Positions 13,499 through 62,740 of a DNA stretch of 64,000 nucleotides are shown here, piece after piece. The notes beneath the pieces were generated by a model that saw nothing but the letters and a program-made list of their open reading frames with translations, was not told the origin of the DNA and did not search any database. The translations under genes were made by a program, and so were the position numbers. The DNA is from Kribbella sp. VKM Ac-2568 (GTDB lineage Bacteria; Actinomycetota; Actinomycetes; Propionibacteriales; Kribbellaceae), in assembly GCF_004345365.1 (NCBI RefSeq), contig NZ_SLVF01000002.1, forward strand, positions 620,001-684,000, given 5' to 3'. The first letter of the stretch is position 1, and every line of letters begins with the position of its first letter.

Positions 13499-14224
13499 TC
13501 AGCCGGCCTGGCGCCGTTGGTGGTCGGTCAGATAGGGAAATGGGTTGCCGGATGCTCGTGCGCCCGACGCCAGCCAGGCAGCGACTCCCTCCGGAGATCG
13601 CTGATGGAGCTCGTCGAGGTACTTCTGCCGCTGCTCGACGATCGAGAGGCGCTCCACCGCCGACCGAGCCTCCTCCAGCAGGAGGAAGCTCCGGCGCCAC
13701 GCGAGACACAAGGCGTCATCGTCGAGAGACTTGAGCTCTCCCATCGGCGCCGCCGCAGAGCTGTTCGGGGAGGGCTGGCCCGACGGTTCAGAGAGGTCAG
13801 GTATCGCCGACTGCGGCTCTACCCCGGGACGGTTGTCCCGAGCGAGCCGTCGAGCCCGAACGAGCGACGTGAGAGCAGGCGTGGTCCCAACCAGCATCAG
13901 CACGACCAGGACGCCGGCCAGTTGGCAGACCACGACCAGGCCCACGGCGGCCGGTGCGATCAGCCCGGCGGCGAGCGCGACACGAGCGATCCTGCGCACC
14001 GCGCGCCGCCCCTCCTCTGCCCAGATGGAGGTGGCGACAATGGCTGCCGACACGGCGACAAAGATCATGCTGGTGAGAGCCCACTGCAGACCCCAGTTGG
14101 TGATCACGCAGAAGAGTCCGGCCGCGGTGGCCAGATAGATACACCACGACCGCACGCGTCGGCTCACGCGGGAGGTATCGGGATCAGTCCCATCATTGCC
14201 ATCTGACCGCGTCGTCTCACTCAC
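13499..14224 (-). CDS. Membrane protein of unknown function, duplicate copy A
   Basis: A 241-residue protein, not recognised. A hydrophilic start with acidic and arginine-rich stretches is followed by four hydrophobic segments (about 28-120). The cytoplasmic C-terminal half contains a helical region (EEARSAVERLSIVEQRQKYL) and the motif RSPEGVAAWLASGARASGNP, which reads like a conserved short domain. It is a close paralogue of the gene at 16593-17324, same strand, with homology running through the coding region and into the 5' flank. Role unknown. Confidence 0.75.
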   Translation of the reverse strand: MSETTRSDGNDGTDPDTSRVSRRVRSWCIYLATAAGLFCVITNWGLQWALTSMIFVAVSAAIVATSIWAEEGRRAVRRIARVALAAGLIAPAAVGLVVVCQLAGVLVVLMLVGTTPALTSLVRARRLARDNRPGVEPQSAIPDLSEPSGQPSPNSSAAAPMGELKSLDDDALCLAWRRSFLLLEEARSAVERLSIVEQRQKYLDELHQRSPEGVAAWLASGARASGNPFPYLTDHQRRQAG

Positions 14225-16592: not shown

Positions 16593-17324
16593 TCAGCCGG
16601 GTTGGCGGCGCTGGCGGTCGGCCAGGTAGGGAAATGGGTTGCCGGATGCTCGTGCGCCGGACGCCAGCCAGGCGGCGATTCCCTCCGGAGATCGCTGCTG
16701 GAGCTCGTCGAGGTACTTCTGCCGCTGTTCGACGATGGAGAGGCGCGCTGCCGCCGACCGGGCCTCCTCCAGCAGGAGGAAGCTCCGGCGCCACGCCAGG
16801 CACAAGGCGTCATCGTCGAGAGAACTGAGCTCCCGCACCGGCTCCGCCGAAGAGCTTTTCAGAGAGGGTTGGCCCCACGGTGCGGGCAGGTCAGGTGTCG
16901 CCGACGACTCCGGCTGTACCACGGGAAGACTGCCCCGCGCGAGCCGTCGAGCCCGAACGAGCGACGTGAGAGCAGGCGTGGTCCCAGCCAACATCAGCAC
17001 GACCAGGACGCCGGCCAGCTTGCAGACCACGACCAGACCCAAGGCCGCAGGTGCGATCAGCCCGGCCGCGAACGCGACACGAGCAATCCTCGGCACCGCG
17101 CGCCGCCCGTCCTCTGCCCAGACCGTGGCGGCGACAAGAGCCGCCGACACTGCAACAAGGCTCACGCTGGTGAGAGCCCACTGCAGACCCCAGGTGGTGA
17201 TCGCGCAGAAGAGTCCGGCCGCGGTGGCCAGATAGATACACCACGACCGGACGCGCCGTCTCATGCCGCGGGAGGTGTCGGGACCAGTCCCATCAGTGCC
17301 ATCTGACCGCGTCGTCTCACTCAC
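16593..17324 (-). CDS. Membrane protein of unknown function, duplicate copy B
   Basis: A 243-residue paralogue of the gene at 13499-14224 with the same four hydrophobic segments and the same C-terminal motif, here RSPEGIAAWLASGARASGNP. The variable linker after the membrane part (about 138-165) carries most differences. It lies convergent to the DUF899 gene with a 43-bp gap. Both copies are intact, so both may be expressed. Function unknown. Confidence 0.75.
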   Translation of the reverse strand: MSETTRSDGTDGTGPDTSRGMRRRVRSWCIYLATAAGLFCAITTWGLQWALTSVSLVAVSAALVAATVWAEDGRRAVPRIARVAFAAGLIAPAALGLVVVCKLAGVLVVLMLAGTTPALTSLVRARRLARGSLPVVQPESSATPDLPAPWGQPSLKSSSAEPVRELSSLDDDALCLAWRRSFLLLEEARSAAARLSIVEQRQKYLDELQQRSPEGIAAWLASGARASGNPFPYLADRQRRQPG

Positions 17325-31093: not shown

Positions 31094-31146
31094 AGGGCCG
31101 AAGGTCCCGACCCACACAGTCCGGCCGACTCGGGACTTCCGGCCCT
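31094..31146. promoter_or_regulatory. Two DevR-type boxes in a divergent promoter
   Basis: AGGGCCGAAGGTCCC at 31094-31108 reads toward the Por operon and GGGACTTCCGGCCCT at 31132-31146 toward the hydrolase gene at 31202. The left box lies 53 bp from the start at 31041, the right box 56 bp from the start at 31202. Confidence 0.75.
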
Positions 31147-31201: not shown

Positions 31202-32314
31202 ATGGCGCAAGCCAGTGTTCGGAGGCTGGTACTGCGCGCCGGTCTGCTGTTCGCGGCCGGCTGCGTCCTTCTTGCCGTCGGAGTCGGGGTCGGCGTGCCG
31301 TATCTGGACAAGGCCGGGCTTCATCCCGTCACGGTCGTGGGCCTCGCCGTCCTGGCGACCGGTCTCGTATCGGTCGGCATCGGCGGCACCACCCTGGTGC
31401 GAGCGACCCGGAGCTGGCGCCGTGTCCTGGTACTACCTGCTCTGCTGGCCGCTCTGGTCATCGCGCTGCTGTCGCTCGGTCAGGCTGTTGCTGCCACGAA
31501 CGTGCCACCGACAGCGGTCGGGACGACCACTCCGGCTGATCGTGGCCTGCCCTTCAGCGAAGTCAGGTTCGCAACTACCGATGGGCTCGCCCTCGCCGGT
31601 TGGTACATCCCGTCGAGGAACCGCGCCGCCGTCGTACTGCTGCACGGGGCGGGATCAACCAGATCGAACGTCCTCGAGCATGCCGTCGTGCTGGCGCGCC
31701 ACGGGTACGGCGTACTCCTCTTCGATGCCCGGGGCCACGGTCGCAGCGAAGGCCGCGCGATGGACTTCGGCTGGTACGGCGACCAGGACGTCAGCGCGGC
31801 TGTGTCCTTCCTCCAGGCCCAGCCGGCCGTGAACGACGAGTTGATCGCCGCCCTCGGTCTGTCCATGGGAGGTGAGGAGGCGATCGGCGCCGCTGCTCAT
31901 GATCAGCGGATCCGGGCTGTCGTCGCCGAGGGTGCGACCAACCGGGTCAGCGCCGACAAGGCCTGGTTGTCGGACGAGTTCGGCTGGCGCGGCACACTGC
32001 AGGAAGGTATGGACCGGCTGACCTACGGCATCACCGACCTCCTCACCGCCGCTGATCAACCGATCGCACTGCGCGACGCCGTCGCGGCATCCGCGCCCCG
32101 CTCGGTTCTGCTCATAGCCGGTGGCGACCGAGCCGACGAGGGCCACGCGAACCACTACATCCAGTCCGCCTCCCCCGCCACGGTCGACCTGTGGATCGTC
32201 CCCGGCACCGGGCACACGGCCGCGCTCGACACCCACCCCGCCCAGTGGGAGCACCGCGTCACCGCCTACCTCGCCGACGCCCTCCACCTCGACGAGCAGG
32301 ACGGTCTGCGCTGA
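31202..32314 (+). CDS. Membrane-anchored alpha/beta hydrolase
   Basis: A 370-residue protein. Three hydrophobic helices at the N-terminus (about 8-32, 42-64, 72-96) anchor an alpha/beta hydrolase domain (about 120-365). The oxyanion region is VVLLHGAGSTRSN, the nucleophile motif is GLSMGGEEA, and the late His is in PGTGHTAALDTHP. ATG 31202 has GGAGGT upstream. Divergent from the Por operon and sharing its control region. Substrate unknown; ester or lipid turnover at the membrane is plausible. Confidence 0.82.
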   Translation: MAQASVRRLVLRAGLLFAAGCVLLAVGVGVGVPYLDKAGLHPVTVVGLAVLATGLVSVGIGGTTLVRATRSWRRVLVLPALLAALVIALLSLGQAVAATNVPPTAVGTTTPADRGLPFSEVRFATTDGLALAGWYIPSRNRAAVVLLHGAGSTRSNVLEHAVVLARHGYGVLLFDARGHGRSEGRAMDFGWYGDQDVSAAVSFLQAQPAVNDELIAALGLSMGGEEAIGAAAHDQRIRAVVAEGATNRVSADKAWLSDEFGWRGTLQEGMDRLTYGITDLLTAADQPIALRDAVAASAPRSVLLIAGGDRADEGHANHYIQSASPATVDLWIVPGTGHTAALDTHPAQWEHRVTAYLADALHLDEQDGLR

Positions 32315-33174: not shown

Positions 33175-33831
33175 TCAGCGCGGCGGACGTCCCTTGGTGC
33201 GTTCGACCGCGTAGACGGCCGCCTCGGTGCGGCGCTCCACCCCCAACTTGCGGAGCAGCCCGGACACGTAGTTCTTCACCGTCTTCTCCGCCAGGAACAT
33301 GAGCTGCGCGATCTGCCGGTTGGTCTTGCCCTCGGCGATCAGGTCGAGGATCTTGCGTTCCTGCTCGGTCAGCGACTTGTACCGGGGGTCGTCGTCCTCC
33401 TCGGCCGGATGCCGCAGCCGCTCCAGTACCGCGGTCGTCATCGCGGGGTCGAGCAACGACTCCCCCGCCGCCAGCCGCCGTACGGCGCCGACCAGGTCGG
33501 TACCGCTCACCTGCTTCAGCAGATAGCCGGACGCGCCGGCCATGATCGAGGTGAACAGAGCCTCGTCGTCGGAGAACGACGTCAGCATCAGGCACGCGGG
33601 CGGCTCGTCCATGGCCGACCGGATGTCCCGGCAGACCGTGATCCCATCGCCGTCGGGCAACCTCACGTCGAGCACGGCCACGTTCGGTCGCAGAGCGGGG
33701 ATCCGCGCGATCGCGTGCGCCGCTGTCGCCGCTTCGCCGACCACTTCGACGTCCGGCTCGTCCTCCAGCAGCTGTCGCAACCCACGGCGGACCAACTCGT
33801 GGTCGTCGAGCAAGAACACCTTGATCGTCAT
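33175..33831 (-). CDS. DevR/NarL-family response regulator, paralogue 1
   Basis: A 218-residue response regulator of the DevR(DosR)/OsdR type. The receiver has D9-D10 and phospho-acceptor D55 in VLDVRLPDGDG. The C-terminal LuxR helix-turn-helix has LTEQERKILDLIAEGKTNRQ and the recognition helix EKTVKNYVSGLLRKL. It is nearly the same protein as the one at 62087-62740. Probably phosphorylated by the DevS-like kinase at 38282 and expected to bind the recurring GGGAC-type boxes. Divergent from the split-barrel gene at 33906. Confidence 0.92.
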   Translation of the reverse strand: MTIKVFLLDDHELVRRGLRQLLEDEPDVEVVGEAATAAHAIARIPALRPNVAVLDVRLPDGDGITVCRDIRSAMDEPPACLMLTSFSDDEALFTSIMAGASGYLLKQVSGTDLVGAVRRLAAGESLLDPAMTTAVLERLRHPAEEDDDPRYKSLTEQERKILDLIAEGKTNRQIAQLMFLAEKTVKNYVSGLLRKLGVERRTEAAVYAVERTKGRPPR

Positions 33832-38281: not shown

Positions 38282-40039
38282 ATGGATGGACGAGCAGGGG
38301 ATCACGCAGGGTCGTGGGACGAAGGTGCCCTCGAGTTCGACGGGCTGTCCAGAGTCCGGCTCGACGCCCTGCTGCAGGAGCTGCTCGGCCGGGTCGACGA
38401 GATCATGGACTCCCAGGAGCGTCTGCGCGCCCTGCTGGACGCGGTCATCGGCATCGGCGCCGACCTGGACCTGAACAGCACGCTCGACCGCATCGTCACG
38501 GCCGCGTGTGACCTGGTCGGCGCGCGCTACGGCGCTCTCGGAGTGGTCGGCCCCGACGGCAAGCGGCTCGTTCGCTTCATCACCCATGGCGTCACCGCCG
38601 AGCAGATCGCCGCGATCGGTCCGTACCCTGAAGGTCACGGCATCCTCGGTCTGCTGATCGACCACCCGACGCCCTTGCGGCTGACCGATCTCGCCAAGCA
38701 CCCGCGATCGTTCGGCTTCCCGCCCAACCACCCTCCGATGGGCAGCTTCCTCGGTGTTCCGATCCGTACCCGCGACCATGCCTTCGGCAACCTGTACCTG
38801 ACCGAGAAGGCGGAGGGCGCCGCTTTCACCGAGGACGACGAACGGACCGTGGCCGCACTCGCGACCGCGGCCGGCGTCGTGATCGACAACGCCCGGCTGT
38901 ACGCCGACACCGAGCGCCGCCGTCGCTGGCACGAGGTGACCGCCGAGATCACCCAGCTGATGCTGACCGACTTCGATCCCCAGCAGGCGCTGCAACTCAT
39001 CGCGACCCGGGCACGCGAGGTGTCCGGCTCGGTTCTCGGTGCCGTCCTGCTGCTGGGCGACGGCGAGCTCGTCATCGAGGTGATCGACGGACCGCCGGGC
39101 TTCACGCAGTACATCGGCCGCCGGATTCCCGCCGACTGGCCGATCCTGAGCGACGTCCTGAACGGCGACGAGCAGGTGGTGGTCGAGAACCTGGCACAGC
39201 TCGCCAAAGAGACCGGCCAGCTCAGCGATGTGCCCGAGCTCGAGGAACTGGGCCGCACGATTCTCGCGCCGCTCCCCGCGGGGCCGCGCAGTACGGGCGG
39301 GATCCTGATGGTGGCGGCGGCCCAGGGGACCGTTCTGGGAGTGACCGTCGGGACCGACCTGGTCCGGATGTTCGCCAACCAGGCGACGCTGGCTCTGGAC
39401 CGCGCACAAGCGCAGCGGGATCAATCCGTGCTGGCGGTGCTGGAGGATCGCGACCGGATCGCCAGGGATCTGCACGACCTGGTCATCCAGCGGCTGTTCG
39501 CCACCGGTCTGCAGCTGCAGGGCATGCACAGGATGGTTCGGCCGGAGGTTCAGCAGCGGATCAGCCGGGCGGTCGAGGACATCGACGCCACCATCCGCGA
39601 CCTGCGGGCGGCGATCTTCGAGCTGCACCACCAGCCCGACAAGAAGTCGTTCCGGGCGGACGTCCAGGCGCTGGTCGAGGAGTACACCTCGGCGCTCGGA
39701 TTCCGTCCCGAGCTGAGCTGCACCGGTCCGCTCGACAGCACCGTGCCGGCCTCCGTGCGACCGCAGATCCTGGCCGCGATCCGGGAATCGTTGTCGAACG
39801 TGGTCCGCCACGCCCAGGCCTCGACCGTCAAGGTCGAGGTGATGGTCACCGGTCAGGACGTCACCGCACGCGTCTCCGACGACGGGATCGGCATCAGCTC
39901 CACGGACCGGCGAAGCGGCCTGCGCAATCTGGAGGAACGCGCGGCCGCACTAGGTGGTGCCGTGCGGCTGGAGCCCAACCAGCCGCACGGCACCGTGCTG
40001 GAGTTGCGCGCGCCCCTCATCAACGCGCCCTCCAGCTGA
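38282..40039 (+). CDS. DevS/OsdK-like GAF-domain sensor histidine kinase
   Basis: A 585-residue soluble kinase. It has two GAF domains (about 60-205 and 230-370), HisKA_3 with phospho-acceptor H398 in DRIARDLHDLVIQRLF, and an HATPase domain (about 490-580; SDDGIGI, GLRNLEERAAALGG). GAF-1 contains GFPPNHPPMGSFLGVPIR and the following FGNLYLTEK, as in DevS/DosT, where this domain binds haem and senses oxygen or NO. Whether haem binds here cannot be read from sequence. Start ATG 38282. It is the only such kinase in the window and must serve one or both DevR-like regulators. Confidence 0.9.
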   Translation: MDGRAGDHAGSWDEGALEFDGLSRVRLDALLQELLGRVDEIMDSQERLRALLDAVIGIGADLDLNSTLDRIVTAACDLVGARYGALGVVGPDGKRLVRFITHGVTAEQIAAIGPYPEGHGILGLLIDHPTPLRLTDLAKHPRSFGFPPNHPPMGSFLGVPIRTRDHAFGNLYLTEKAEGAAFTEDDERTVAALATAAGVVIDNARLYADTERRRRWHEVTAEITQLMLTDFDPQQALQLIATRAREVSGSVLGAVLLLGDGELVIEVIDGPPGFTQYIGRRIPADWPILSDVLNGDEQVVVENLAQLAKETGQLSDVPELEELGRTILAPLPAGPRSTGGILMVAAAQGTVLGVTVGTDLVRMFANQATLALDRAQAQRDQSVLAVLEDRDRIARDLHDLVIQRLFATGLQLQGMHRMVRPEVQQRISRAVEDIDATIRDLRAAIFELHHQPDKKSFRADVQALVEEYTSALGFRPELSCTGPLDSTVPASVRPQILAAIRESLSNVVRHAQASTVKVEVMVTGQDVTARVSDDGIGISSTDRRSGLRNLEERAAALGGAVRLEPNQPHGTVLELRAPLINAPSS

Positions 40040-44264: not shown

Positions 44265-44595
44265 CACAGGCGGGCGACTTCTCGTTCACTGCTGGTGGCG
44301 GGTCCCCGAACGCTTCTCACCACTGCCTCTTCGGTCCGGGTCGAGGACGACCGGCCCGCCGGGAAACGGGCTTCCGTCTTGATGACGGCGGATCTCGTGG
44401 CCTCGGCCACTGTCTGGTGTCCCGTTCCCGGCGAGCCGGTCGGCTCCTCTGCACTTCCAGCATCGGGCGGGACCCATCGGATGTTCAGGGCCGAAGGTCC
44501 CGAACTCGTGGGACGGTGGACCGAGAGCATCCAGGCCCTGCGCGAGGTGACCTTGGGCCCTGGAGCGGATCCGCGACGGCCACCAGAGTCGAACC
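44265..44595. other. Non-coding control region before the HAD-GH65 operon
   Basis: A 331-bp stretch with no convincing gene; open frames here lack typical codon bias. It holds the DevR-type boxes listed at 44487 and 44547 and a half-match GGGACCCATCGG at 44469. The first 200 bp show nothing I can name. Confidence 0.6.
44487..44562. promoter_or_regulatory. Two DevR-type boxes before the membrane-HAD/GH65 operon
   Basis: AGGGCCGAAGGTCCC at 44487-44501 is a perfect copy of the inverted consensus. GTGACCTTGGGCCCTG at 44547-44562 is a weaker direct copy 60 bp further, 33 bp before ATG 44596. Confidence 0.7.
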
Positions 44596-45966
44596 ATGAA
44601 GAACTCTCCGACCCCTGGACCGGTGACGCTGAGACCTTCACCGACTGCCCGGCGAACCGCCCTGGTGACCGAGACGCTGGCGTACCTGGGCGGCGTCGTG
44701 GTCCTGGTCGGCGCGGGCCTGATCGCCGCGCGGTACTGGCCCGACCTGCACGAGACCACTCGGCTCGGCATCGCCGGCGTGGCCGCCGCCGTACTGCTCT
44801 GCGCCGCGCTCGCAGTACCCACCGACAAGCCCGCGGGCCGTCGGATGAGGACAGTGATCTGGCTGCTCTCGACCGCCGCGGCAAGCCTGTTCTTCGGACT
44901 CCTCGGCGGTGAGGTACTCGGCTGGCGCGCCATCGACACCACCCTGCTCATCGGCGTCGGCACCGCCTTGTACTCCGCGGCGCTGTGGCTCTGGAGTGGG
45001 CGCGCTGCGGCACTGCAACTAGCCTTCCTCACGGCGACGCTGGTCAGCGCGGGAGCGATCGGTGCCCACCTCGAACAGCCGTACTGGCCCGGCCTGGCGG
45101 TCTGGTTCGCAGCGCTGGAGTGGCTCCTGCTGGGGCACAGCGAGATCGTGCCCTCCCGCCGACCGACGCAGGTGGCAGCATCCATCGGTCTCCTCGTGGG
45201 CATCGGCCTGACGCTGCCGCAGGACATCGGCATCCTGCTGGGCCTGGCCACCATCGCCGGCTTGCTCATCTACGCGGTCCAGATCTGGGACCTGCTGCTG
45301 ATCCTGATCGGCATTGCCGGTGCTCTGCAGATCCTGCCCATCGCGGTCACCCAGTGGTTCCCCGGTCGGCCGGCCGCACCGATCGCGTTGCTGATCGGGG
45401 GCGCCGCCCTGGTCGGCGCCGCGATCGCGATAGCTCGCACATCCGACGCCCGGCCCTCAGACGCCGGATCCGGAGAAAGTCCGACGATCGATGCCGGCCG
45501 GTACGACGCCGTGGTGTTCGACCTGGACGCGGTCGTCACCGACGACGGCAGGCATACCTTCCCAGAAACCCTCGCCCTGATCGATCGGCTCACCGCCGCG
45601 GGCCTGACGTACGCGGTGACCTCAGCGAGCAGCACAGCTGCCGAGGTTCTGATCGCCGCGGGCCTGCAGGATCTCTTCGACATCCGTGTGGACGGCCGCG
45701 TCGCCGAGGAGCTGGGCCTCCCGGAGAAACCGGATCCCGCGGTGCCCCTGGTCGCTGCACACCGCCTCGGGGTCACCCCGTTGCGGACGGTCGTGGTGGA
45801 GATCGGGCCGGCCGGCGTCGAGGCGGGCCGGAACGGTGGTTTCGGCCTCGTGATCGGGGTGGACCGTTCGGGCCAAGCCGCCGGGCTCGCTGGGCACGGA
45901 GCGGACCTGGTCGTCCGAGACCTCGCCGAGATCGCTGTCACCCCTGACCGCGAGCCGGCCCGATGA
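44596..45966 (+). CDS. Multi-span membrane protein fused to a HAD (beta-phosphoglucomutase-like) domain
   Basis: A 456-residue fusion. Residues 25-285 carry about eight to ten hydrophobic helices resembling DUF2157-type membrane domains. Residues 300-450 are a HAD fold with motif I VVFDLDAVVTDDG, a threonine/serine motif II (VTSASS) and a lysine in EKPDP. The stop overlaps the GH65 start (ATGA). GH65 phosphorylases release beta-glucose 1-phosphate, and beta-phosphoglucomutase is their normal partner, so a membrane-tethered phosphoglucomutase or phosphatase is a fair guess. Usual bPGM has DLDGV; here Gly is Ala. Confidence 0.75.
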   Translation: MKNSPTPGPVTLRPSPTARRTALVTETLAYLGGVVVLVGAGLIAARYWPDLHETTRLGIAGVAAAVLLCAALAVPTDKPAGRRMRTVIWLLSTAAASLFFGLLGGEVLGWRAIDTTLLIGVGTALYSAALWLWSGRAAALQLAFLTATLVSAGAIGAHLEQPYWPGLAVWFAALEWLLLGHSEIVPSRRPTQVAASIGLLVGIGLTLPQDIGILLGLATIAGLLIYAVQIWDLLLILIGIAGALQILPIAVTQWFPGRPAAPIALLIGGAALVGAAIAIARTSDARPSDAGSGESPTIDAGRYDAVVFDLDAVVTDDGRHTFPETLALIDRLTAAGLTYAVTSASSTAAEVLIAAGLQDLFDIRVDGRVAEELGLPEKPDPAVPLVAAHRLGVTPLRTVVVEIGPAGVEAGRNGGFGLVIGVDRSGQAAGLAGHGADLVVRDLAEIAVTPDREPAR

Positions 45967-48359
45967 ACGAGTGGATGCTGCGCTTCGACGACTACGACCC
46001 GGCCGACGAGCGCCGACGCGAGGCTCTGTGCACGGTCGGCAACGGGTACTTCGCCACCCGCGGCGCCTGGGCCGGTTCCCGGGCCAGTGACCATCACTAC
46101 CCGGGCAGCTATGTCGCCGGCCTGTACAACCGGCTCTGCGACGGGATCGACGGCCGCACGGTCGAGAACGAGAGTCTCGTCAACGTCCCCGACTGGCTGC
46201 CGCTCGAGGTCGCGATCGACGACGGCGAGTGGCTCACCCCGGACAACTCGCAGGTGCTCGACCACCAGCTGGAGCTCGACCTGCGCCGCGGCGTGCTGAC
46301 CCGGCGTTTCCGCCTTCGCGTTGCCCAGGGCAACATCGTTGCCGGGGTCGAACGACGATTGGTGAGCATGGCCGATGCCCACCTGGCAGCTCAGAGCCTC
46401 GCCGTCACCGCCGAGAACTGGTCCGGAGTACTACGGATCCGGACCGGCGTGGACGGCTCGGTCACCAACGGCGGCGTCGACCGGTACCAGAAGCTGTCCG
46501 GCCGGCATCTCGTGGAGATCGAGCCTGCCGCGCAAGACGGAGCGACCGCACTTGTGGTCGCCAGGACGAGTCAATCGTCCGTGCGCATCGCGGTCGCCAA
46601 TCGCACTGCCGTCTTCCACAACGGAACACCTTGTGAGGGCGGGTGGACGAACTCGGTCGACGCCACGACGGCGTACCACGAGGTCGCTGTCGCGGTACAA
46701 CCCGGTGACGTCGTCAGTGCTGACAAAGTCGCGGTCATCCACACGTCGAGGGATGTGGCGATCTCGGAACCGCTTCAGGCATGCCTTGCCGCCCTGCCCG
46801 ACCTACCCGCGTTCGACCGACTTCTCGAGCCGCATGTCCTCGCCTGGTCCCACCTGTGGCGGAAATTCGCGCTCGACCTGGAGGAACCTGCCGACGGCAC
46901 GCCGGCGGCAGTGCGGCTGAACCTGTTCCATCTGCTGCAGTCCGTGTCGCCGCACAGCGCGGACACCGACGCCGGCGTACCGGCCCGCGGTCTGCACGGA
47001 GAGGCTTATCGGGGCCACGTCTTCTGGGACGAGCTGTTCGTCTTTCCCGTTCTGACCTTGCGGATGCCGGCCTTGACCCGGGCACTGCTGCGTTATCGGC
47101 ACCGCCGCCTCCCGGCCGCGCGCCGGGCGGCCGCAGCGGCCGGCCTCCCCGGCGCCATGTATCCGTGGCAGTCCGGCAGCGACGGCCGCGAGGAGAGCCA
47201 GACCCTGCACCAGAACCCGCTGTCAGGACGCTGGACTCGTGACGCCACCTACCTGCAGCGCCATGTGGGCCTGGCCGTCGCCTACACCATGTGGCAGTAC
47301 GTCGAGGCGACCGGCGACGAGGAGTTCCTCGCCGAGCACGGCGCCGAGGTCATCCTCGAGGTGGCCAGGTTCTTCGCCGGTCTCGCGAGTTACGACCAGG
47401 CTCGGGACCGCTATGTGATCAAGGGAGTCGTCGGGCCCGACGAATTCCACACCGGGTATCCCGAGCGGCCCGACGCGGGCATCGACAACAATGCCTACAC
47501 CAACGTCATGGCGGTGTGGCTGTTCCGCCGTGCGGCCGAGGTGCTCGAGCGACTGCCCGGCCGGCGGCGGACGGAGCTCACCGAGTCGATCGGGCTGCGG
47601 CCGCAGGAACTGAGCCGGTGGGAGGAGCTCACCCGGCGGATGTACGTACCGTTCCACGACGGCGTGATCAGCCAGTTCGAGGGCTACGCCGACCTCGACG
47701 AACTCGACTGGGACCGCTACCGCCGCAAGTACGGCGATCTCCGGCGGCTGGACCGGATCCTCGAGGCCGAGGGACTTGCGGTGACGGCCTACCAGGTGTC
47801 GAAGCAGGCCGACGTGCTGATGTTGCTGTACCTGCTGCCTCGCCAGGAACTGTACGAACTGCTGGCCACGCTCGGGTATCCGACCAGGGCCGACACGATC
47901 CGCCGGACCGTGAGGTACTACCTCCCCCGCACCTGCCACGGCTCCTCGCTCAGTGCCGTCGTCCATGCCTGGGGTCTCACCTCGCTCAACGCCGACCGGG
48001 CACTGGAGTTCCTGGCGCAAGCGCTGCACAGCGATTCCGGCGATCCAGCTCAGACCGGGACGACCGCGGAGGGGATCCACCTGGCCGCGATGGCCGGCAG
48101 CGTCGATCTGGTCCAGCGATGCTTCACCGGCCTCACCCTGTCCGGTGACGAGCTGAGATTCGCGCCACGGTGGCCGGTCAGCCTGGGCCGGATGCGGATG
48201 AATCTGCGGTACCGCGGGCATCACCTCACCGTGCGGGTCTCGGCCGACGGTCTCGCCGTCTCCGCCGACGCCGGCAGCGCCGATCCGATCAGGGTGCGCT
48301 GCCACGGCACGACGAAATCTCTGGCCGCCGGCCGGACCGTGGAGTGGCCGGCGCGCTGA
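45963..48359 (+). CDS. Glycoside hydrolase family 65 protein (disaccharide phosphorylase type)
   Basis: A 798-residue GH65 enzyme. The N-terminal beta-sandwich (about 5-270) has TVGNGYFATRGAW. The (alpha/alpha)6 catalytic barrel (about 320-690) has general acid E494 in GVVGPDEFHTGY, and the phosphate/sugar-binding segments KQADVLMLLYLLP and SLSAVVHAW follow. Family members phosphorolyse trehalose, maltose or kojibiose to beta-glucose 1-phosphate; specificity cannot be assigned. It overlaps the HAD fusion gene by four bases. It gives ATP-sparing entry of storage sugar into glycolysis, which suits a low-energy programme. Confidence 0.9.
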   Translation: MNEWMLRFDDYDPADERRREALCTVGNGYFATRGAWAGSRASDHHYPGSYVAGLYNRLCDGIDGRTVENESLVNVPDWLPLEVAIDDGEWLTPDNSQVLDHQLELDLRRGVLTRRFRLRVAQGNIVAGVERRLVSMADAHLAAQSLAVTAENWSGVLRIRTGVDGSVTNGGVDRYQKLSGRHLVEIEPAAQDGATALVVARTSQSSVRIAVANRTAVFHNGTPCEGGWTNSVDATTAYHEVAVAVQPGDVVSADKVAVIHTSRDVAISEPLQACLAALPDLPAFDRLLEPHVLAWSHLWRKFALDLEEPADGTPAAVRLNLFHLLQSVSPHSADTDAGVPARGLHGEAYRGHVFWDELFVFPVLTLRMPALTRALLRYRHRRLPAARRAAAAAGLPGAMYPWQSGSDGREESQTLHQNPLSGRWTRDATYLQRHVGLAVAYTMWQYVEATGDEEFLAEHGAEVILEVARFFAGLASYDQARDRYVIKGVVGPDEFHTGYPERPDAGIDNNAYTNVMAVWLFRRAAEVLERLPGRRRTELTESIGLRPQELSRWEELTRRMYVPFHDGVISQFEGYADLDELDWDRYRRKYGDLRRLDRILEAEGLAVTAYQVSKQADVLMLLYLLPRQELYELLATLGYPTRADTIRRTVRYYLPRTCHGSSLSAVVHAWGLTSLNADRALEFLAQALHSDSGDPAQTGTTAEGIHLAAMAGSVDLVQRCFTGLTLSGDELRFAPRWPVSLGRMRMNLRYRGHHLTVRVSADGLAVSADAGSADPIRVRCHGTTKSLAAGRTVEWPAR

Positions 48360-48456: not shown

Positions 48457-49332
48457 ATGTCGTCACAGACCGCCCCGGTAGTCGTCGGGTACGACGGCTC
48501 GCAGGGAAGCACCGCAGCGTTGCGCTGGGCCACGGCCGAAGCCGTTCGCGAGCACGCGCCGCTGCGAATCGTCGAGGCCTTCGAGCTGGAGGTCGTGAGC
48601 CGCCCCTCGCCCGGAAAGGTCGTACCACTGGCGGCGCTCAGGAGCGTACGTGAGCGCGGACTCGAAGCGTTGGCGGATGGCATCCGGCTGCAGTACCCCC
48701 GGCTCGACGTACAGACCCTGCTGCTCGAGGGCACTCCGGCCGCATCCCTGATCGAGGAGACGGCGCAGGCACGGCTGGTCGTGCTGGGCACCCGCGGCCT
48801 CGGCGGGTTCAGCGGGGCCGTCCTCGGTTCGGTAGCCGTCCAGGTCAGCGCCCACGCGCACAGCCCGGTCGTGATCGTGCCTGCGGACCCGCGGCCGAGC
48901 GCGCACACCACACCCACCGTGGTCCTCGGTGTCGACGGCTCGAAGGTGTCCGCGCGGGCGACCGACTTCGCGTTCGAGCAGGCCGAGGCGTTCGGCGCCC
49001 GCCTGGTGGTGGTGCACGCCTGGCGCAGCCCGTTCTCGACCTACGAGCACGGCAAGGGCGAGCTCGTGTTCGACAAGGCCGAAGTGCGGAAGGCGGCCGA
49101 GCTCCTGGTCGCCGAAGCGCTCGCAGGACCGCTCGCGGACTATCCCGACACCGAGGTCGACGTCCGGCTCGTCCCGGGCCACCCCGCCCGCGCGCTCCTG
49201 CAGGCCGCCGAAGGCGCGGACCTGGTAGTGGTGGGCTCACGCGGTCGGGGCGGTTTCACCGGCCTGCTGCTGGGCTCCACCGGCCAGCACGTCCTGCACC
49301 ACGCCCCCTGCCCGGTGGCCATCGTCCGCTGA
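48457..49332 (+). CDS. Universal stress protein, two UspA domains
   Basis: A 291-residue tandem USP. Domain 1 has VVVGYDGSQGSTAAL and VLGTRGLGGFSGAVLGSVAVQV; domain 2 has VVLGVDGSKVSARAT and VVGSRGRGGFTGLLLGSTGQHV, both with complete nucleotide loops. AGGAGGA lies upstream of ATG 48457. It stands alone, convergent to an ABC-exporter remnant. Confidence 0.9.
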   Translation: MSSQTAPVVVGYDGSQGSTAALRWATAEAVREHAPLRIVEAFELEVVSRPSPGKVVPLAALRSVRERGLEALADGIRLQYPRLDVQTLLLEGTPAASLIEETAQARLVVLGTRGLGGFSGAVLGSVAVQVSAHAHSPVVIVPADPRPSAHTTPTVVLGVDGSKVSARATDFAFEQAEAFGARLVVVHAWRSPFSTYEHGKGELVFDKAEVRKAAELLVAEALAGPLADYPDTEVDVRLVPGHPARALLQAAEGADLVVVGSRGRGGFTGLLLGSTGQHVLHHAPCPVAIVR

Positions 49333-62086: not shown

Positions 62087-62740
62087 ATGACGATCAAGGT
62101 GTTCCTGCTCGACGACCACGAGGTGGTCCGGCTCGGACTGCGCCAACTGCTCGAGAGTGAACCCGACATCGAGGTCATCGGTGATACCGGGACCGCCGCC
62201 GGTGCGACCGTGCAGATCCCCGCTCTGCAACCCGACGTGGCAGTCCTGGACGTCAGGCTCCCGGACGGCGACGGCGTCACCGTCTGCCGGGACATCCGGT
62301 CTGCCATGGACAACCCGCCGGCCTGCCTGATGCTCACGTCATTCTCCGACGACGAGGCGTTGTTCACCGCGATCATGGCCGGAGCGGCCGGCTACCTGCT
62401 CAAGCAGGTCAGCGGAACCGACCTGGTCGGCGCGGTACGACGCCTGGCGACCGGTGAGTCGCTGCTCGATCCGGCGCTGACGATGGCCGTGCTGGAACGA
62501 CTGCGGAATCCGGTCGAGGACGAGGACCCGCTCTACAAGTCGCTCACCGAGCAGGAGCGCAGGATTCTCGACCTGATCGCCGAGGGCAAGACCAACCGGC
62601 AGATCGCCCAGGTCATGTTCCTGGCCGAGAAAACCGTCAAGAACTACGTGTCGGGACTCCTGCGCAAGCTGAACCTGGAACGGCGCACCGAGGCCGCGGT
62701 CTACGCCATCGAGCGGACCAGGACCATTCACCCGCGTTGA
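62087..62740 (+). CDS. DevR/NarL-family response regulator, paralogue 2
   Basis: A 217-residue response regulator nearly identical in layout to that at 33175-33831. D9-D10, phospho-acceptor D55 in VLDVRLPDGDG, YLLKQVSGTDLVGAVRRLA and the recognition helix EKTVKNYVSGLLRKL are shared. Start ATG 62087 behind GGAGGA. Differences cluster in the middle of the receiver (about 33-50) and the linker (about 145-152), while the DNA-binding helix is conserved, so both should bind the same sites. No kinase adjoins it. Confidence 0.92.
   Translation: MTIKVFLLDDHEVVRLGLRQLLESEPDIEVIGDTGTAAGATVQIPALQPDVAVLDVRLPDGDGVTVCRDIRSAMDNPPACLMLTSFSDDEALFTAIMAGAAGYLLKQVSGTDLVGAVRRLATGESLLDPALTMAVLERLRNPVEDEDPLYKSLTEQERRILDLIAEGKTNRQIAQVMFLAEKTVKNYVSGLLRKLNLERRTEAAVYAIERTRTIHPR

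What the first reader, a model, noticed from the sequence alone, without database searches (positions are those of the whole stretch)
44596..48359. Membrane-tethered HAD enzyme coupled to a GH65 phosphorylase under a DevR-type box
The HAD domain normally encoded as a soluble beta-phosphoglucomutase is attached to a multi-span membrane domain and overlaps the GH65 gene. This could channel beta-glucose 1-phosphate at the membrane, or sense it, and use storage disaccharide phosphorolytically when oxygen is short.
Basis: inference. Interest (0 to 1): 0.6.

Follow-up and report, generated by a model that had tools for sequence, protein, structure and literature searches.

The report
Membrane-bound, cap-less HAD beside GH65
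In a soil actinobacterium's low-oxygen gene island, a sugar-phosphate enzyme that normally accompanies a trehalose-phosphate-splitting enzyme has lost the part that grips its substrate and has been welded to a membrane domain, so it is more likely a membrane-anchored accessory or sensor than a working enzyme.

Summary
One continuous ORF (44596-45966) encodes ten predicted membrane helices (DUF2157-like) followed by a HAD core; it overlaps a GH65 gene (45963-48359) by 4 bp, and a DevR/OsdR-type box lies at 44488-44501. The reading "HAD enzyme" is weak. The core lacks the whole cap domain of beta-phosphoglucomutase (beta-PGM) and the motif-IV aspartate (Glu402-Ile403). In two other Kribbella genomes (one is K. 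monticola) a homologous promoter and the same start site drive an intact soluble HAD before the orthologous GH65; here the chimera takes that place. Cap-less HAD modules recur: 23 of 24 (Kribbella and mycobacterial OtsB1-type) have lost at least one of four catalytic residues, against 2 of 34 cap-bearing relatives. The module still shows purifying selection (Ka/Ks about 0.25). The GH65 carries five of six positions of the trehalose-6-phosphate (T6P) phosphorylase signature and belongs with the GH65 of OtsB1-type proteins; OtsB1 (Rv2006) is a DosR-regulon protein of unknown function. Most likely: an oxygen-controlled T6P phosphorylase with a membrane-anchored pseudo-HAD accessory or sensor. No activity, binding or expression was tested, and this exact operon was seen in one genome.

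The parts
44374..44563 (+). Promoter block homologous to the promoters of the intact beta-PGM-type HAD genes in G037 (L034) and K. monticola (L039)
   Evidence: blastn 77.2% over 193 columns (E 8e-32) and 74.1% over 197 (E 1e-30); weaker in G005/L040 (71% over 83, E 4e-4); alignment A5
44488..44501 (+). DevR/OsdR-type box GGGCCGAAGGTCCC
   Evidence: pattern also met at the same place in L034 and L039, and missed by one base in L040; with two flanking bases it matches the predicted S. coelicolor OsdR consensus at 12 of 16 positions and the listed SCO2347 site at 15 of 16
44547..44560 (+). Second near-box GTGACCTTGGGCCC (7 of 8 core positions)
   Evidence: identical in L034 and L039, one change in L040
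44596..45966 (+). Chimeric ORF, 456 aa: DUF2157-like membrane domain plus cap-less HAD core
44596..45462 (+). Membrane domain (residues 1-289), ten predicted helices, N-in/C-in
   Evidence: AlphaFold2 pLDDT 89.7 when folded alone; topology; stand-alone homologues L037 and L038 pass the DUF2157 cut-off
45481..45951 (+). Cap-less HAD core (residues 296-452)
   Evidence: PF00702 profile positions 89-191 only; structural match to Rv3400 (8h5s) Z 24.9, rmsd 1.5 over 150 residues
45520..45528 (+). Motif I Asp309-Leu-Asp311 (kept)
   Evidence: Sequence, alignments
45727..45729 (+). Motif III Lys378 (kept)
   Evidence: Sequence
45799..45804 (+). Motif IV Glu402-Ile403; the intact HADs have Glu-Asp
45963..48359 (+). 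GH65, trehalose-6-phosphate-phosphorylase-like, 798 aa
   Evidence: PF03632/PF03636/PF03633 over cut-off; best solved relative 9lb6, named trehalose-6-phosphate hydrolase, 473.9 bits; motif S-Q-G-Q-D-E
48457..49332 (+). Universal stress protein, conserved downstream neighbour
   Evidence: Usp PF00582; next to the orthologous GH65 in L034 and L039
33175..33831 (-). DevR-like response regulator (receiver plus LuxR-type HTH), candidate regulator
38282..40039 (+). DevS-like GAF histidine kinase, candidate sensor
62087..62740 (+). Second DevR-like response regulator

Best explanation
The two genes are a hypoxia-island operon. The GH65 enzyme most likely interconverts trehalose 6-phosphate plus phosphate with beta-glucose 1-phosphate plus glucose 6-phosphate. 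Its customary partner, a soluble beta-PGM, has been replaced behind a homologous promoter and at the same start site by a chimera of ten membrane helices and a cap-less HAD core facing the cytosol. The core has probably lost mutase and phosphatase activity and acts as an accessory or sensing domain (pseudoenzyme) that holds or tunes GH65, or another trehalose-phosphate enzyme, at the membrane. Shown from sequence or computation: fusion, cap loss, loss of the motif-IV Asp, promoter homology, motif class, continuing purifying selection. Inferred: loss of activity, hypoxic induction, T6P as substrate, the accessory role. The beta-PGM step could be supplied by the HAD gene beside the other GH65 on contig C1.
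For: Cap absent in the profile match and in the model. The intact soluble HAD sits in the same slot in G037 and K. monticola, with a homologous promoter and the start codon in the same alignment column. Motif tally: 32 of 34 cap-bearing HADs keep D, D, K and D; 1 of 24 valid cap-less modules (L040) does (two of the 26 rows classed cap-less were dropped as mis-parsed, see full report). Cap-less modules are joined to different partners: membrane domain (window, L033, L036), flavodoxin (L043), T6P phosphatase and GH65 in mycobacteria. Ka/Ks 0.25 for the window module against L034; six neighbour genes give 0.08-0.33 (ratios mine). Precedent: the extra N-terminal domain of M. tuberculosis OtsB2, whose removal costs 70% of activity (PMC11046441 passages); that structure (5gvx) is the second-best sequence match and Foldseek match of the window protein. 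GH65 motif S-Q-G-Q-D-E against D-Q-G-Q-D-E for the T6P phosphorylase tested by De Beul et al.. OtsA and OtsB family matches are present, so T6P can probably be made.
Against: Both motif-I aspartates and the motif-III lysine are kept, so residual chemistry is possible, and L040 keeps all four residues despite cap loss. The GH65-coupled chimera was seen in one genome only. Six of nine Kribbella T6P-type GH65 genes have no HAD in the 1.5 kb flanks held, so GH65 does not seem to need it. 5gvx, the precedent, is not among the 50 rows shown by the second structural aligner. Position 64 of the GH65 motif is Ser, not Asp, positions 416 and 585 depend on gap placement, the phosphate-site Lys is Arg, and the depositors of 9lb6 call it a hydrolase. 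No test of GH65-HAD contact was possible.
Confidence: 0.55

Rival explanations
1. One reading: the membrane-tethered HAD is an active beta-PGM or sugar phosphatase that channels beta-glucose 1-phosphate released by GH65 at the membrane.
For: Operon overlap with GH65; motif I D-x-D and the motif-III Lys are kept; beta-PGM ancestry; cytosolic side predicted.
Against: Cap domain absent; motif-IV Asp replaced by Ile; beta-PGM model cut-offs not met; relatives of the chimera lose further residues, with L036 lacking even the nucleophile.
Confidence: 0.12
2. Accident on the way to decay: a recombination joined a DUF2157-type gene to the remains of the operon HAD, the product has no function, and only GH65 downstream matters.
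For: The GH65-coupled fusion was found in one genome; the window HAD branch is long (0.40 against 0.04-0.05 for L034 and L039); six of nine Kribbella GH65 genes of this type have no HAD beside them.
Against: Open frame with steady GC3 throughout; Ka/Ks 0.25, within the range of six neighbours; membrane-HAD chimeras are also present in G003 and G037 and other fusions in G005 and G027.
Confidence: 0.2
3. The GH65 is a trehalose (or kojibiose) phosphorylase, so the operon mobilises free storage disaccharide.
For: GH65 is multi-specific as a family; Ser where the tested T6P phosphorylase has Asp could weaken 6-phosphate binding (inference).
Against: Kojibiose enzymes carry EEAPxx, maltose enzymes KV[MF]NES and a tested trehalose enzyme TRIGPP; the window has S-Q-G-Q-D-E. 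The other GH65 of this genome (L001) carries T and R at the first two positions, as in the trehalose type. The best solved relative is named a T6P enzyme.
Confidence: 0.13

Closest known systems
OtsB1-type proteins (M. tuberculosis Rv2006 and relatives)
   Same: GH65 of the same group (50-54% identity to 21 Mycobacteriaceae loci), a HAD of beta-PGM origin that is cap-less in 18 of those 21 by the script, and DosR-regulon listing for Rv2006 (tables seen in passages). Rv2006 itself was not fetched; its layout is from the review passage (length 1327 aa) and recall.
   Different: OtsB1-type loci have a T6P phosphatase domain between HAD and GH65 (tested in two mycobacterial loci) and mostly one long frame, with no membrane domain noted; here there is no phosphatase domain, GH65 is separate and the HAD is on a DUF2157-like domain.
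Soluble beta-PGM-type HAD plus GH65 operon of Kribbella monticola (L039/L061) and G037 (L034)
   Same: Homologous promoter with a box, same start position, overlap with GH65 and downstream Usp; GH65 78% identical.
   Different: HAD is complete (252 aa, cap, DLDG...K...ED) and has no membrane part.
OtsB2 N-terminal accessory domain (PDB 5gvx)
   Same: Sequence match to the window module (50.1 bits) and Foldseek rank 2; also attached to a trehalose-phosphate enzyme.
   Different: N-terminal to a phosphatase, not on a membrane domain; the sequence match covers window residues 383-452 only; not in the 50 rows.
Rv3400 beta-PGM-type HAD (PDB 8h5s)
   Same: Best structural match to the module core: Z 24.9, 150 residues, rmsd 1.5, 41% identity.
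   Different: Rv3400 has a cap-sized insert between the two aligned parts and keeps motif IV Glu-Asp (alignment).
DUF2157 membrane domain (LiaF-type, put in a sensory domain in PMC11237479, one passage seen)
   Same: Membrane part scores as a weak DUF2157 match; two close stand-alone homologues pass the cut-off.
   Different: Ten helices in the model, and the fusion lacks the first about 30 profile positions of DUF2157.

Membership tests
Beta-phosphoglucomutase (TIGR01990 / TIGR02009) | Curated score cut-off | tested here: not met
   51.9 against 189.4 and 63.3 against 153.35 bits
Beta-phosphoglucomutase (TIGR01990 / TIGR02009) | Helical cap between motifs I and II | tested here: not met
   Nine residues from the motif-I Asp to the core start, against 86-101 in 29 cap-bearing rows (one search prints 89-104, counted from three residues earlier); no cap in the model
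Beta-phosphoglucomutase (TIGR01990 / TIGR02009) | Motif I D-x-D and motif III Lys | tested here: met
   Asp309, Asp311, Lys378
Beta-phosphoglucomutase (TIGR01990 / TIGR02009) | Motif IV acidic pair | tested here: not met
   Glu402-Ile403
Beta-phosphoglucomutase (TIGR01990 / TIGR02009) | Mutase activity | not testable with these tools
   Needs an assay
GH65 | N-terminal, catalytic and C-terminal domains; general acid Glu | tested here: met
   PF03636, PF03632, PF03633 over cut-off; Glu494
T6P phosphorylase subgroup of GH65 | Six-position motif D-Q-G-Q-D-E (positions 64, 392, 394, 402, 416, 585) | tested here: inconclusive
   S-Q-G-Q-D-E; position 64 differs, 416 and 585 depend on gap placement
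T6P phosphorylase subgroup of GH65 | Phosphate site Ser, Ser, His, Lys; not the hydrolase set | tested here: inconclusive
   Ser661, Ser662 and His706 present; the position I matched to Lys is Arg350
T6P phosphorylase subgroup of GH65 | Activity on T6P plus phosphate | not testable with these tools
   Needs an assay
OtsB1 (Rv2006-type) three-domain protein | HAD, T6P phosphatase and GH65 in one chain | tested here: not met
   No PF02358 in either protein; two separate ORFs; the only PF02358 match of the genome is on C5
DUF2157 (PF09925) | Curated score cut-off | tested here: not met
   24.2 against 32.4 bits; of four stand-alone homologues tested, L037 40.1 and L038 43.9 pass, L041 25.5 and L042 30.8 do not
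DevR/DosR/OsdR regulon | Recognition box in the promoter, conserved in relatives | tested here: met
DevR/DosR/OsdR regulon | Binding by the regulator and induction at low oxygen | not testable with these tools
   Needs gel shift and expression data

The most novel reading that the evidence does not exclude
Actinomycetota have repeatedly turned the beta-PGM partner of a T6P-phosphorylase-type GH65 into a cap-less pseudo-HAD module that travels between dormancy proteins (T6P phosphatase, flavodoxin, DUF2157-like membrane domain). In this Kribbella it has become a membrane-anchored receptor that reads a sugar phosphate (beta-glucose 1-phosphate or T6P) and adjusts GH65 or the membrane when oxygen runs out.
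Probability: 0.2. Interest if true: 0.7.

Novelty: new variant of a known kind. Interest (0 to 1): 0.48.

Why it matters
OtsB1 (Rv2006) is listed in the DosR regulon, and a 2024 review calls its function unknown (PMC11046441 passage). The Kribbella operon splits related parts into separate genes, with an intact-HAD version (K. monticola) and a cap-less membrane version (this genome) behind homologous promoters. That makes a natural pair in soil bacteria for asking what the GH65 does and whether the HAD is needed as an enzyme. If the GH65 runs in the synthetic direction, beta-PGM + GH65 + T6P phosphatase would make trehalose from glucose 6-phosphate without a nucleotide sugar, an economy that would suit low-energy conditions (inference).

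Tried and rejected
Rejected: assembly or frameshift artefact (steady GC3 and frame score). Rejected: a widespread membrane-HAD fusion. Full-length matches were found in G000, G003 and G037 among 38 genus genomes, in the same three of 391 order genomes at E <= 1e-26 (a fourth row that ran to query residue 322, G259/L051, proved to stop right after the membrane part), and in G000 alone of 394 class genomes at E <= 1e-33. Searches scored only 4 first-look candidates per genome and used strict cut-offs, so weaker fusions could be missed.

Considered and set aside: that co-occurrence shows a functional tie between the membrane protein and GH65. 7 of 9 GH65 genomes and 0 of 29 others have the membrane domain (Fisher p 2.9e-6; the G005 stub not counted), but all nine lie among the 11 of 38 genomes that carry the oxidoreductase gene of the same island, so island membership explains most of it. 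The DevR-like regulator itself is in 27 of 38.

Not settled: whether the five Kribbella cap-less modules share one origin. The tree puts the window core next to the intact L034/L039 (99/71), but one clade is not rejected (AU p 0.168). Both 'cap lost in place, then fused' and 'older chimera, then recombination with the operon HAD' fit.

Led nowhere: genome-contig scan with the chimera alignment (30 stretches, none confirmed); search for a remnant of the neighbouring 203-aa gene in the window (best E 0.077 and elsewhere); first mixed alignment A3, wrong because some loci were read on the wrong strand, replaced by A4. The structure search of the membrane part returned ESX-3/ESX-5 chains first (Z 16.2-17.6, rmsd 7.2-9.0 A, next unrelated row 12.4; one such row, Z 18.3 and rmsd 4.5, with the whole model); for helices with such rmsd it is only a lead.

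Literature: (T6P phosphorylase + beta-phosphoglucomutase + T6P phosphatase; DUF2157 + haloacid dehalogenase) found no paper in the held library; subscription papers are mostly missing, so this does not show absence from print.
Full report
WHERE IT IS. The window is positions 620001-684000 of contig C2 of an 8.9 Mb genome. The genus is Kribbella: genome G014 of the same genus carries a 225,179-base contig of the same length, and with the GH65 at the same place, as the named Kribbella monticola record NZ_QFXK01000004.1. Roughly 21-64 kb of the window looks like a dormancy (DosR/OsdR-like) island: universal stress proteins, Acg-type nitroreductases (NF047509 259.7 bits against 199 for the one tested), two DevR-like regulators, a DevS-like GAF kinase, pyruvate phosphate dikinase and a CoA-ligase/acetyltransferase.

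WHAT IS THERE. ORF 44596-45966 encodes 456 aa; GH65 45963-48359 encodes 798 aa; they overlap by ATGA. GC3 stays at 0.82-0.89 along the fusion ORF. AlphaFold2 predicts ten helices (16-285) and a HAD Rossmann core (297-450), mean pLDDT 85.1. Loop charges favour both ends in the cytosol. The membrane domain is DUF2157-like: 24.2 bits, below the cut-off of 32.4; of four stand-alone homologues tested two pass it (40.1 and 43.9) and two do not (25.5 and 30.8). The three chimeras start at profile position 31-35, the four stand-alone proteins at 1-2.

THE HAD HAS LOST ITS CAP. Pfam matches only profile positions 89-191 of 191. In the sequence, motif I (DLDAVVTD) runs straight into the motif-II helix (DGRHTFPETLAL), where K. 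monticola and G037 have a full cap. Motif I Asp309/Asp311 and Lys378 remain; motif IV is Glu402-Ile403 instead of Glu-Asp. The best fold match is Rv3400 (8h5s; Z 24.9, rmsd 1.5 over 150 residues; Foldseek E 6.3e-7). OtsB2 (5gvx) is second in Foldseek (E 3.5e-6) but not among the 50 rows shown.

THE SAME SLOT ELSEWHERE. One search covered 38 Kribbella genomes with the chimera. In G037 (L034) and K. monticola (L039) a complete 252-aa HAD overlaps an orthologous GH65 (78% identity), followed by the same Usp. Window DNA 44374-44563 aligns with the promoters of those HADs (77.2% over 193 columns, E 8e-32; 74.1% over 197, E 1e-30), and the start codons fall in the same alignment column. So the chimera sits behind a homologous promoter at the old start site. 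G005 (L040) has a short hydrophobic stub plus cap-less HAD behind a more distantly related promoter, without GH65. G003 (L033) and G037 (L036) hold membrane-HAD chimeras not next to GH65, and G027 (L043) a flavodoxin-HAD chimera. Nine of 38 Kribbella genomes have this type of GH65 at E <= 1e-150: two with an intact HAD next to it, one (the window) with the chimera, six with no HAD hit in the 1.5 kb flanks held.

HOW GENERAL THE DECAY IS. A HAD was found near GH65 in 54 of 80. In 45 of those 54 the gap between HAD match and GH65 is 748-1,090 bp (my count); four of four gaps tested hold a T6P phosphatase domain, PF02358 (L067, L072, L078, L103). In 20 of 21 Mycobacteriaceae loci the HAD match lies in an open frame of 1,217-1,398 codons (L092 shows 71), as expected for the one-chain OtsB1 layout. 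One search sorted 82 HAD rows: 34 with a cap, of which 32 keep all four catalytic residues (K. monticola counted twice, as L039 and L061); 26 classed as cap-less; 22 not sorted (20 are Kribbella HADs of the other type on which the script's motif-I pattern failed, plus L119 and L139). I dropped two of the 26: L108, where no motif I was aligned, and L014, a 251-aa HAD mis-parsed by the script. Of the remaining 24 (18 Mycobacteriaceae, 1 unplaced actinomycete, 5 Kribbella), one (L040) keeps all four residues. Results against a clean rule: mycobacterial L072 keeps cap and residues, L104 keeps the cap but has lost residues, and archaeal L101 keeps the cap without an aligned Lys.

IS IT STILL MAINTAINED? 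Nei-Gojobori values for the window HAD core against L034 are Ka 0.219, Ks 0.885 (ratio 0.25). Neighbours, window against L034: GH65 0.20, Usp48457 0.22, Acg 0.33, the 42659 ORF 0.17, alcohol dehydrogenase 0.08, Usp52693 0.25; the intact HAD pair L034-L039 0.11 (ratios mine). So the module is less constrained than the intact pair but within the range of its neighbours; Ks is high and the method simple. The tree (60 rows) gives the seven Kribbella HADs of this type one clade (98/94) with the window next to the intact pair (99/71); a single cap-less clade is not rejected (AU p 0.168).

THE GH65. De Beul et al. 2021 (PMC8537180; abstract, results section, figure legends and tables read, passages elsewhere) define six specificity positions; their tested T6P phosphorylase has DQGQDE, trehalose phosphorylase TRIGPP and kojibiose phosphorylase EEAPWS, and maltose enzymes have KV[MF]NES. 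I mapped the positions by hand through the printed alignment to 3wiq. The window has S-Q-G-Q-D-E; position 416 as Asp assumes an ungapped reading (the printed alignment pairs a Trp), and 585 lies near a gap. Of 86 GH65 rows (80 loci, five Kribbella, L001), 59 read [DS]QGQDE at the mapped columns (26 with D, 33 with S; count mine). The other GH65 of this genome (L001, C1) has T and R at the first two positions, as in the trehalose type. Phosphate-site residues (PMC8626586 passages) are Ser, Ser and His, with Arg where I expect the Lys; 67 of the other rows have Thr for the second Ser or differ otherwise, so this site varies in the group. The best solved relative, 9lb6, is named trehalose-6-phosphate hydrolase by its depositors, so hydrolysis is not excluded. 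The genome has one OtsA-family and one OtsB-family match and a 250-codon frame with a HAD match (80.2 bits) just before the C1 GH65.

REGULATION. The box pattern is not enriched in the window as a whole (9 against 6.1) but sits in intergenic DNA (7 of 9, p 1.6e-6; 7 against a shuffled mean of 0.60, 0 of 300). Gene calls are from a home-made codon scorer. In 11 further Kribbella stretches, 16 of 25 sites are intergenic against 1.6 expected; L040 has none. A consensus AGGGCCGATCGGCCCT was predicted for OsdR of S. coelicolor and several predicted sites were bound in gel shifts (PMC5069765 passages); the window site AGGGCCGAAGGTCCCG matches 12 of 16, and 15 of 16 against the listed SCO2347 site. 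A second near-box is identical in three promoters and has one change in L040. Rv2006 (otsB1) is listed as a DosR-regulon gene (PMC4090907 and PMC2867773 passages).

MECHANISM. Most likely GH65 interconverts T6P + Pi and beta-glucose 1-phosphate + glucose 6-phosphate under low oxygen, and the HAD core is a non-catalytic cytosolic module on a membrane anchor. The nearest tested precedent is the extra N-terminal domain of OtsB2, whose removal costs 70% of activity (PMC11046441 passage); part of it matches the window module by sequence. DUF2157 has been put in a membrane sensory domain of LiaF-type proteins (PMC11237479 passage). What the module binds or contacts is unknown.

SCORE. The parts are known; the combination (cap-less HAD on a membrane domain at a T6P-type GH65 operon) and its recurrence across dormancy proteins are a new variant. 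Interest 0.48: a useful lead on OtsB1-type systems, limited by one genome for the exact operon and by no biochemical test.

Noticed in passing
L043 969-1967: In Kribbella genome G027 a Flavodoxin_5 domain is fused to a cap-less HAD module, next to a DevR-like gene.
   Followed up: partly
L067-L139 (mycobacterial loci): HAD domains of OtsB1-type loci are cap-less with eroded motifs in 18 of 21 Mycobacteriaceae rows; L072 and L104 keep a cap and L139 was not sorted.
   Followed up: partly
33175-33831 and 62087-62740: Two DevR-like regulators 84% identical in one island.
   Followed up: no
13499-14167 and 16593-17324, minus strand: Two ORFs share a stretch near the N-terminus (RRVRSWCIYLATAAGLFC), a likely duplication.
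   Followed up: no
44596-45462: The predicted membrane domain matches chains of ESX-3/ESX-5 complexes best (Z 16.2-17.6, rmsd 7.2-9.0 A), above the next row (12.4); I take them for EccD (recalled). Possibly a shared fold.
   Followed up: partly
31095-31108 and 31132-31145: A pair of DevR-type boxes before an alpha/beta-hydrolase gene at 31202; one 14-mer is identical to the box at 44488.
   Followed up: no
L001 523-2889 (contig C1): Second GH65 of this genome, trehalose-phosphorylase-like at the first two motif positions, directly behind a HAD match.
   Followed up: partly
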